Of a stretch of 64,000 bases of DNA, positions 36,341-40,031 are shown in pieces. Below the pieces are notes generated by a model. It saw only the letters and a program-made list of their open reading frames with translations. It made no database searches and was not told where the DNA came from. A program made the position numbers and the translations under genes. Source of the DNA: Grammothele lineata (Eukaryota; Basidiomycota; Agaricomycetes; Polyporales; Polyporaceae); the NCBI GenBank assembly GCA_002150815.3, contig NDFF03000091.1, positions 124,001 to 188,000 on the forward strand, read 5' to 3'. The first letter of the stretch is position 1. Each line of letters begins with the position of its first letter.

Positions 36341-37290
36341 TCACGGTGCCGTCTGTACAGACACCTGACTCTGCGTCCGCCCTGCTTCTTTCTATACCAG
36401 TGCGTGAGCTCTGCACGCGTCTCTGAGGACATATCCGCAACTCACCTTCATCACCTTCTGTCGCCTCAGCTCCCATTCTGGACACCGTCTCCGCAGATCA
36501 CTGAGCATCTCGTCGGCGAGAGTGTACTGGCCTTCGGGCTTCTCGACCTCGACCGCACGCTCTGCCTCGCGTGTCATTCGCAGCTGCTCCGCGACGACCT
36601 TCATCTTCTCCTGGTACCGCAGCTCCGCCTGCGCGCAGTTCTCCCGATACCGCTTCTGGCTCGCAAGAATCTCCTCTTGGAGGGCTCGCATGCGCTCCAG
36701 ATGCCGGAGCTCCGCTTGCCGCTGCCATTCGGCGCGCTCCCGTGCGAGCCGGGCCTGCACGTCGTCCGCGTTCATGCGCCGGCGGAGGAAGTCGAGGCCA
36801 TTGTCGTACGCCTGTGGGGGGTACGTGGCGCCGGGTGAGCGACCACAGAAGGTCCGTGTGGAAGAATCGAAGACGGCCCACCTTGCGCTTCGCGGGGTCG
36901 CTGAGGACGTCAAAAGCCGTGCGCACCTGCATGCCACGAGGCGGGTTAGCTCGCGAGGGTATGTCTTGTCGCGAAATCGAGCCGACGCACGTCTCTGAAT
37001 CTCGCTTGAGCCGCCTCAATTTCTGCCTCGTCGGAACCAGGTGGCAGCTTGTCTGAAAGAGATCAGTGAGACCATCAATCGGACGCAAAATTACCACCCC
37101 ACACGCACCTGGATGCGTTTCGAGTGCCTTGATCTTATACGCTTTCCTTACTGCCACGCCAAATTCGTCCATTTCAACGGCGCTGCTCGATCCGCAGTAA
37201 TGTAGGGAAAGCCATACCATCGTCATTGGAGGCTCCTTGTGGGACGTCCAGGATATCATACAGGTTACGTACTTCGGCCTTATGGCCCAT
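36341..37290 (-). CDS. J-domain co-chaperone with charged coiled-coil tail
   Basis: A type III DnaJ-like protein that would stimulate an Hsp70. Exons: 37218-37290, 37109-37150, 36991-37052, 36882-36926, 36446-36811, 36341-36391; 212 residues. The J-domain covers residues about 8-75: NLYDILDVPQGASNDD, VRKAYKIKALETHPDKLPPG, RFRDVRTAFDVLSDPAKRKAYD. The essential HPD is encoded across an intron (CCA G / AC). A long Arg/Glu-rich helix follows (RLARERAEWQRQAELRHLERM..., about 90-185), likely a coiled coil. No glycine/phenylalanine region or zinc finger is present. The last exon, ending QTAP, is the least certain because only one acceptor and a short frame support it. Specific client not known; some resemblance to DNAJC17-like nuclear proteins is only by layout. 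Confidence 0.82.
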
Positions 37291-37580
37291 GAACGCTATG
37301 AACGATCCAGCCTGGTAAGGATGGAATGGAGAGGTGGAGGTAGCGCGAGAACAGCGTGGGGCGTCGCGCGGCCGACGGCGCGGGCATGCATGTTCGATTG
37401 CGAGTCGGTCACGTGGTCGCGCTTGGACGCGACGGGGCGCTTACGCGTAGCTCATTAGAAGATATCAAGCGCATCCACAATGTGTCCGCCTTGTTCCCGC
37501 TGTCTTCGACTTGAACCACTACTGCGCCCGCCGCAAGTACTGCGTACACTACAGAGATGGTCCACTGGGTGATCATATCG

Positions 37581-38545: not shown

Positions 38546-40031
38546 ATGACCCGTGTCCGCAAAATCCCCGACTCCGCCGTCAAGGTGAAATTTACCCCCG
38601 AAAAAGCTGGCAAGCCGCGCCCTAAGACGGTCAATATCGCAGATCTCAAGCTACACACCACCGAAGTCCTCGACACATTCTTCAAGTTTGTGGTAGAGCG
38701 TCACGCGATACACTATCGAAGACTTCGCGGCGGCGCTCAGCCATGGACGGACGACGCCATTCTAGCAAGTTATCCATTCACGAATGTCTTTCGCGTCTTC
38801 GACCGCGTCACACAGTACATCCTACACAATGTCATCAACCGTGGTGACCCGTCCCTCGAAGAGCAATGCTTTCGGGTCATGCTTTTCCGGTCTTTCAACA
38901 AAGAGGAGACGTGGGAGGCACTCGAAGAACACTTTGGCGAGCTTACCTGGCGTGACTTCGACCTTGCGGAATATGAGGACGTGCTGCTGGAGCGACAACA
39001 AGATGGCCACGCGCTCTACAACCCGGCGTACATCATACCCTCTCCCAAGCTTGGAGGGCAAGCGGCCGCATCCAACCACCTCCGTCTCATTGAGATGATG
39101 ATGGACGAGGGCTTGCCCGCACAACTGCGGAAACTGGAGCACCTGCGCGACGCGCACGGGAGGATCACCTTGTACCCGGGGATGGGGGACTTTACGGCGC
39201 TGCAGTACGTTAATCCACCTGCCGATTCCACGATGCTTCCATCACGGGGACACTCATCTGGCCGCCTTCTCCCCGCGCTTCGCTTCTAGACTGCTGCTCG
39301 ACCTGAATATGACCCCGCATTTCAACTTCTCCGAAGACGAATGGGTCGCCCTCGGTCCTGGCTCGCTCGAATGCCTCCGCAAGATGTTTGGCCAGTCAGT
39401 GCGCGGACACGAGCTCGACGCGCTCCGGTACCTTCACCGCACCCAGCACGCCCACTTCGCGCGTCTCCGCATCCCGCCCGGTCGCATCCCACGCCTCGCG
39501 TCCGGCTTCGTCGGCGGGCTCTCCATGGTCGACATCGAGCATGCACTCTGCGAGTGCGAGAAGTACTCGCGCGCGGTGCACCCCACCATCCAGGGCCGCC
39601 GCCAAAAAGTTGGCAAGCGCGTGTTCGTGCCCCGCCCCGGGCCCATCACCGCCGACGTCCCCGCGCACTGGCTGGACCCGAACAGCAAGCGGCAGCATAC
39701 CTACACTTTCCCGCCACCAGACATCGTTGACGGCCAGGAGGTCTACGAGGTCTCGCACATCGTCGCAGAGAGGCCGTCCGCCAAGACCTCGGGCGACCCG
39801 TCCTACCTCGTCCGCTGGGTCGGGTACGGGCCTGATGATGACACCTGGGAAAAGCGCAGTCTCTTGGAGGACGCGCCGAAAGTACTCGCAGCGTGGGAGA
39901 GGCTGACGGAGCGCATACAGAGACGCACGTCGGAATACCAGGGCATGGGCGCAACATATCGGCGCAAATCTCATGCTCAGTCTGCGATCCGGCGAACTCC
40001 CACGAGGGTTCGGGGCCGCAAGACGCTCTAA
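38546..40031 (+). CDS. 5-hmdU kinase-helical/aGPT-PPlase-type domain fused to a chromodomain
   Basis: Two exons, 38546-39204 and 39290-40031, encode 466 residues. Residues about 45-300 match from memory the helical, DNA-glycosylase-like domain of alpha-glutamyl/putrescinyl-thymine pyrophosphorylases and 5-hmdU DNA kinases (PF18723-type): RHAIHYRRLRGGAQPWTDDAIL, YPFTNVFRVFDRVTQYI, FRSFNKEETW, LYPGMGDFTALQLLLDL, ALGPGSLECLR. Those enzymes hypermodify thymine-derived bases; what the fungal branch does is not established. Residues about 369-427 form a chromodomain: VYEVSHIVAE, SYLVRWVGYGPDDDTWE, with the three cage aromatics (Tyr, Trp, Tyr) present, so methyl-lysine reading is plausible. The tail is Arg/Lys-rich. 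It would act in the nucleus at chromatin. The 85-nt intron restores LQLLLDLNM. No kinase P-loop is present. Domain name moderately sure; chromodomain sure. Confidence 0.72.

What the first reader, a model, noticed from the sequence alone, without database searches (positions are those of the whole stretch)
38546..40031. Base-modification-type helical domain fused to a chromodomain
Seen directly: one gene of two exons whose first two thirds carry the PWTDDAIL / FTNVFRVFDR / GDFTALQ / LGPGS pattern, and whose last third is a chromodomain with cage residues Tyr, Trp, Tyr in place. From memory of the family, the first pattern belongs to the DNA-glycosylase-like helical domain found in 5-hmdU DNA kinases and alpha-glutamyl/putrescinyl-thymine pyrophosphorylases, which act on modified thymine in phage DNA and occur in mushrooms that carry TET/JBP genes. 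A chromodomain would bring it to methylated histone H3, suggesting a nuclear system linking base modification (or removal) to heterochromatin. The kinase half is absent.
Basis: partly seen in the sequence, partly recalled or inferred. Interest (0 to 1): 0.8.

Follow-up and report, generated by a model that had tools for sequence, protein, structure and literature searches.

The report
Base-modification-type domain joined to chromodomain
A mushroom gene joins a DNA-base-handling domain, known from phages and bacteria, to a reader of methylated histones, and many basidiomycetes keep the pair, which points to an untested chromatin-targeted base-processing protein.

The parts
38546..39204 (+). exon 1: start codon, basic N-terminal tail, first part of HMUDK_hel domain
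   Evidence: translation; Pfam on the exon-1 frame alone E 1.1e-72
39205..39289 (+). intron, GT..AG, 85 bp
   Evidence: sequence and spliced translation; 218 of 228 relatives keep the same length across the junction
39290..40031 (+). exon 2: end of HMUDK_hel, linker, chromodomain, basic tail, stop TAA
   Evidence: Pfam on the exon-2 frame alone finds both domains
38660..39596 (+). HMUDK_hel (5-hmdU DNA kinase helical domain / aGPT-PPlase clade 1), aa 39-322, interrupted by the intron
   Evidence: PF18723 E 3.7e-111, 281 of 281 profile positions
38741..38806 (+). conserved N-terminal motifs PWTDDAIL (aa 66-73) and FTNVFRVFDR (aa 78-87), including W67, N80, R83, D86
39531..39572 (+). C-terminal motif DIEHALCECEKYSR (aa 301-314); E-H at 303-304 in the fungal group, Q-N in the bacterial group
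   Evidence: E 169 and H 169 of 172 fungal-group rows (3 gaps); Q 55 and N 54 of 55 bacterial-group rows
39660..39671 (+). PAHW (aa 344-347): end of the part shared with bacterial relatives, so the fusion point lies between about aa 348 and 370
   Evidence: P and W in 40 of 40 bacterial-group rows and 58 of 59 fungal-group rows of A1
39744..39902 (+). chromodomain aa 372-424; cage Y372 (39744-39746), W396 (39816-39818), Y399 (39825-39827)
   Evidence: PF00385 E 4.6e-12; positions; cage conservation

Best explanation
This is a nuclear-type protein, one locus in its genome, in which a DNA-base-directed domain with an HhH-glycosylase-like predicted fold (HMUDK_hel), related to bacterial cassettes of modification/conflict type and to phage thymine hypermodification enzymes, is tethered to a methyl-lysine-reading type of chromodomain. 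Shown: both domains, the conserved fusion, the conserved polar core and aromatic cage, and the company of TET/JBP and DNMT matches in the genome. Inferred: the chromodomain docks on H3K9me-type heterochromatin, and the helical domain flips out and processes a 5-substituted pyrimidine (5-hydroxymethyluracil or a TET/JBP product) in transposon-rich DNA, serving genome defence.
For: Pfam. Homologs in many basidiomycetes (listed rows). 167 chromodomain-bearing full-domain sequences plus 5 others are separated from 55 bacterial-type ones with support 0.997. Of 77 positions at least 95% conserved in the bacterial group, 57 have the same majority residue in the fungal group and 32 reach 90% there; R52, W67, F78, N80, R83, D86, L147, G214, F216, G242, G244, C307, E308, K311, Y312, R314 also agree in two phage proteins. 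Against the window, helical identity exceeds chromodomain identity in 166 of 166 pairs. Fold neighbours of relative P0003 are PUGT, queuosine salvage enzyme DUF2419, AGOG, OGG and AlkA, and among viral models the SP10 5-hmdU DNA kinase at E 1.5e-11. Cage aromatic in 164/166, 171/171, 171/171 rows. Genome: 10 of 17 Tet_JBP matches over cut-off, 6 DNA_methylase matches on 3 contigs.
Confidence: 0.45

Rival explanations
1. Double reader without catalysis: the helical domain recognises (flips) an oxidised or hydroxymethylated pyrimidine and the chromodomain a methylated histone, so the protein is an anchor or recruiter.
For: No kinase or transferase partner of the phage pathways was recognised in the genome (limited searches); the region of the HhH Asp is variable in the fungal group; many chromodomain proteins are non-enzymatic (general knowledge).
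Against: A set of polar residues (R83, D86, R110, E303, H304, C307, E308, R314) is almost invariant among the ungapped fungal-group rows, which looks more like an active site than a binding surface alone.
Confidence: 0.25
2. DNA glycosylase that excises TET/JBP products (5hmU, 5fC, 5caC) in heterochromatin and so feeds base excision repair.
For: HhH-glycosylase fold neighbours AGOG, OGG, AlkA. [quoted passage not shown] cinerea. PF03167 gave no match at E <= 1e-3 while 13 of 14 controls rang.
Against: No HhH-GPD Pfam match at E <= 1. No invariant Asp in aa 229-241. A relaxed search gives weak UDG matches, one pair over the cut-off only with its neighbours and with stops inside, so UDGs are not shown to be absent; ordinary HhH-GPD matches exist (4).
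Confidence: 0.13
3. Targeting and base-presenting subunit of a 5-hmU DNA kinase whose catalytic P-loop subunit is supplied in trans.
For: In phage SN1 the domain lies directly beside a P-loop nucleotide kinase gene; kinase-helical fusions exist (P0107; one open frame in loci L089, L095, L096, L098).
Against: Only one Thymidylate_kin locus in this genome, presumably dTMP kinase; 70 of 80 bacterial loci show no such kinase nearby. SN1-type kinases were not searched for in the fungus.
Confidence: 0.07
4. Enzyme on free nucleotides or RNA bases, like the queuosine salvage enzyme DUF2419, merely located in the nucleus.
Against: The chromodomain fusion and the phage DNA-modification relatives point to DNA.
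Confidence: 0.05
5. Artefact of joining two genes.
For: None found.
Against: Both domains lie in the exon-2 frame and a chromodomain match is found in 171 of 242 collected sequences.
Confidence: 0.005

Closest known systems
HMUDK_hel / aGPT-PPlase clade 1 proteins of phages (SN1/M6 type, SP10 5-hmdU DNA kinase, phiW-14)
   Same: Same domain by sequence (SN1) or predicted fold (SP10, phiW-14); universal residues including F-x-N-x-x-R-x-x-D and C-E-x-x-K-Y-x-R in the two phage proteins compared; SN1 shares the E-H pair at 303-304
   Different: About 24-26% identity over the domain for SN1 and CBA120; SN1 places it with a P-loop kinase and other modification genes; CBA120 has E-N at 303-304; no chromodomain in SN1 or CBA120
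Bacterial HMUDK_hel proteins, named 'nucleotide kinase domain-containing' by NCBI, in TS-like/MazG_C/ImmA-IrrE/HTH cassettes
   Same: Closest non-fungal relatives, 43% (unnamed metagenomic P0067) and 42% (Nocardioides P0074) identity; shared C-terminal extension to W347
   Different: Q-N in place of E-H; cassette partners (54 of 80 loci have all four); no chromodomain match in the 55 of the bacterial group
Phage PaMx11 gp46 PUGT and amino acid:DNA transferases (ADDT, PF18724; PDB 8z2m, 8z2n, 25qc)
   Different: No significant sequence-profile relation (hhalign E 0.04-0.16); different invariant residues
Chromodomains of MPP8, CDYL, Chp1, Clr4
   Same: Best sequence matches of the C-terminal domain in the PDB, MPP8, Chp1 and CDYL also by structure; aromatic cage
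   Different: C-terminal position behind a base-directed domain; specificity unknown; of 19 other chromodomain matches in this genome (35-40% identical) 7 lie in open frames of 1300-1340 aa, probably chromovirus polyproteins by length

Membership tests
HMUDK_hel (PF18723) | profile match over the curated cut-off along the whole domain | tested here: met
   371.4 bits against cut-off 25, 281 of 281 positions
HMUDK_hel (PF18723) | same predicted fold as phage members | tested here: met
   Foldseek to SP10 5-hmdU DNA kinase E 1.5e-11 and 8 further viral models at E <= 1e-3, using relative P0003
5-hmdU DNA kinase (complete enzyme) | P-loop kinase domain in the protein | tested here: not met
   only HMUDK_hel and Chromo at E <= 1
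Amino acid:DNA transferase (ADDT, PF18724) | profile match | tested here: not met
   no PF18724 match at E <= 1; hhalign not significant
HhH-GPD DNA glycosylase | PF00730 profile match | tested here: not met
   no match at E <= 1
HhH-GPD DNA glycosylase | catalytic Asp after the HhH motif | tested here: inconclusive
   no invariant Asp in aa 229-241 of the fungal-group rows; the residue correspondence is low-confidence
HhH-GPD DNA glycosylase superfamily fold | structural similarity | tested here: inconclusive
Chromodomain | profile match and three-aromatic cage | tested here: met
   46.1 bits against cut-off 25.1; Y372, W396, Y399
Chromodomain | binding of methylated lysine | not testable with these tools
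   needs peptide binding

The most novel reading that the evidence does not exclude
Basidiomycetes turned a base-modifying or anti-phage enzyme domain of bacteria into a transposon defence: the chromodomain holds it on H3K9-methylated repeats, where it detects and chemically processes hydroxymethylated pyrimidines that transposon-encoded TET/JBP enzymes make while erasing silencing marks. It would be a eukaryotic hypermodification or excision step directed by a histone mark.
Probability: 0.17. Interest if true: 0.88.

Novelty: new variant of a known kind. Interest (0 to 1): 0.62.

Why it matters
If the inference holds, a eukaryote directs a thymine-hypermodification-type enzyme with a histone mark, which would tie two epigenetic layers together; if it excises, it would fill the gap stated in PMC8889193 (passages seen), that no excision mechanism for oxidised methylcytosine has yet been discovered in fungi. 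It is testable, since the model mushroom Coprinopsis cinerea has a homologue with both domains (CC1G_11207, P0180).

Tried and rejected
Gene-fusion artefact: rejected. Sequence-profile link to ADDT: not significant with whole and trimmed alignments. Link of HMUDK_hel with TET/JBP in viruses: 0 of 47 records; many are fragments and the control was silent, so absence is not proven. Absence of uracil-DNA glycosylases: first search empty, relaxed search gave weak matches, so I make no such claim. MazG_C and ADDT in the fungus: no match, controls silent. Rooting the tree with phage SN1 failed because of a branch of length 3; I used an unrooted split without the two phage rows. Hydroxymethylase among extra fungal thymidylate synthase copies: they look like tandem copies of the ordinary gene by eye. 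A chromovirus origin of the chromodomain is only hinted at. PADLOC: P0003 and P0069 had no match; the kinase half of P0107, the kinase of L056, and the L044 and L094 neighbours did. Phage kinase of SN1 type: no match in the 80 bacterial loci.

Papers: Iyer 2013 (gkt573), Lee 2021 (gkab781), Iyer 2014 PNAS and a DOI that I tried from memory for the PUGT structure paper are not held. From recall only, the Iyer 2013 abstract says that some such systems occur in basidiomycetes, so the fusion may already be mentioned there. Searches (listings, the long ones cut at 10 or 20 rows; no paper) listed none that I recognised from title or abstract start as describing the fusion. Passages of PMC13297926, PMC7066317 and PMC10799480 were seen and held nothing on it.

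Full report
What is there. The finding's coordinates are exact. Exons 38546-39204 and 39290-40031 (+), separated by an 85-bp GT..AG intron, give 466 aa without internal stop. Pfam finds HMUDK_hel at 39-322 (all 281 profile positions, E 3.7e-111) and Chromo at 372-424 (E 4.6e-12), and nothing else at E <= 1. The exon-2 frame alone contains the end of HMUDK_hel and the chromodomain, so the fusion is not made by splicing. Across the junction 218 of 228 aligned relatives have the same length. It is the only HMUDK_hel place found in the 41.8-Mb assembly (two exon matches).

A conserved family. One search listed 120 of 230 matches, a second with a profile of 12 members 120 of 228; one protein is in both lists, so 239 are distinct. 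The fungal names among the listed rows are basidiomycetes, from Polyporales, Agaricales, Boletales, Russulales, Gloeophyllales and Hymenochaetales to Pseudozyma flocculosa of the smut group (placements are from my own knowledge); Coprinopsis cinerea CC1G_11207 is P0180. Of 242 sequences (239 plus the window protein and two phage proteins), 229 had at least 240 residues of the domain; 13 shorter ones were dropped. A chromodomain profile made from 25 family members matched 171 of 242, and 167 of the 229. Without the two phage rows, one split of the tree holds all 167 plus five more (four named fungi, one unnamed metagenomic protein that carries a precomputed Pfam chromodomain) against 55 bacterial-type ones, support 0.997. 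This fits one fusion. Below I call the 172 the fungal group and the 55 the bacterial group; both contain unnamed metagenomic proteins whose origin I did not check one by one.

What is conserved. Of 292 positions, 77 are at least 95% conserved in the bacterial group; 57 of these have the same majority residue in the fungal group and 32 reach 90% there. Near-invariant in both groups are R83, D86, Q90, R110, T122, F216, Q220, G244, D301, C307, E308 and R314, though Q90, R110, T122, Q220 and D301 differ in at least one of the two phage proteins. Residues 303-304 are E-H in 169 of 172 fungal-group rows (three gaps), Q in 55 and N in 54 of 55 bacterial-group rows; phage SN1 has E-H, CBA120 E-N. The Glu after the HhH motif, invariant in the 55, is Glu in 81 of 172 fungal-group rows, which speaks against a plain HhH-glycosylase Asp mechanism. 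The bacterial similarity runs on to P344/W347, so the chromodomain was added behind a complete bacterial-type protein. Identity to the window is higher in the helical domain than in the chromodomain in 166 of 166 relatives (medians 0.40 and 0.32). The cage is aromatic in 164/166, 171/171 and 171/171 rows; these rows came from a profile search, so strongly decayed chromodomains would have been missed.

Context elsewhere. In phage SN1, which is M6-like, the domain lies beside a P-loop kinase within a modification cluster (PMC9476957, whole text read). PMC6449724 (passages) mentions, as an unpublished result, that purified M6 5hmdU DNA kinase modifies 5hmdU DNA; PMC6457204 (passages) reports that 5-HMUDK phosphorylates hmU, not hmC. 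In 80 bacterial loci (the best 80 of 566 by similarity to P0069, not to the fungal protein; mostly Actinomycetota; some truncated) MazG/MazG_C is near in 64, a TS-like protein in 63, an HTH in 59, a Peptidase_M78 in 59, a thymidylate-kinase-like protein in 10, and the first four together in 54. Pfam of representatives is; the representative of the main TS-like cluster scored below the cut-off (E 0.0091), another TS protein beside the domain (L098) well above it (E 1.3e-21). PMC13092281 (section 5 and passages) lists a 5-hydroxymethyluracil kinase and a thymidylate synthase among domains of experimentally validated anti-phage systems, and aGPT-PPlase and MazG among predicted ones; I could not check whether those are the same proteins as here.

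Context in this genome. There are 17 Tet_JBP matches, 10 over the cut-off, and 6 DNA_methylase matches on 3 contigs; a single Thymidylate_kin locus; no ADDT or MazG_C match, though their controls were silent. Of 19 other chromodomain matches, 35-40% identical, 7 lie in open frames of 1300-1340 aa, probably chromovirus polyproteins. [quoted passage not shown]

Interpretation. Membership in HMUDK_hel and in the chromodomain family is tested and met. It is not a complete 5-hmdU kinase, not an ADDT and not an HhH-GPD by profile. It works, most likely, like the base-flipping half of those systems, addressed to methylated chromatin. The conserved polar core argues for catalysis or tight base recognition; the evidence does not decide between transferase/hypermodification, excision and pure reading. 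The TET/JBP link is circumstantial, and 0 of 47 viral records had a Tet_JBP match.

Novelty. The domain combination is already in databases (precomputed Pfam domains), and a 2013 survey that I could not open may mention basidiomycete members (recalled). No paper that I recognised in my searches describes the function of the fusion. I rate it a new variant of a known kind.

Noticed in passing
bacterial loci among L020-L099 (e.g. L054, L044), and L124: A recurring bacterial cassette of HMUDK_hel, thymidylate-synthase-like protein, ImmA/IrrE-type peptidase, HTH and MazG+MazG_C (54 of 80 loci have all four partners; plasmid example L124).
   Followed up: partly
L051:9462-9752, L124:7704-7964, L125:851-1240: An acyl-carrier-like protein cluster occurs in 9 of the 80 loci (PP-binding in the representative; annotated in L124), and a Rhizobium locus has a holo-ACP synthase: a possible carrier-bound group for base modification.
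   Followed up: no
L125:1-702: A pYEATS domain gene lies several genes from a Rhizobium HMUDK_hel protein that its record names 'putative DNA base hypermodification protein'.
   Followed up: no
L094:1080-3134 and similar loci: TIR + SLOG-cluster proteins (one representative by Pfam) match by profile in 8 of 80 bacterial loci, a sign of conflict or defence context.
   Followed up: no
G000:C219:226933-231717 and 246887-247831: Besides an apparently complete thymidylate synthase gene, two further copies within about 20 kb, one nearly complete and one decayed.
   Followed up: partly
haloarchaeal plasmids, H78-H80: HMUDK_hel relatives at 26-31% identity on plasmids of Natronomonas, Haloarcula and Natrinema.
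   Followed up: no
window 37174-37440 (-): Short frame that looks J-domain-like by eye (NLYDILDVPQGAS); Pfam gave no match for the fragment.
   Followed up: no
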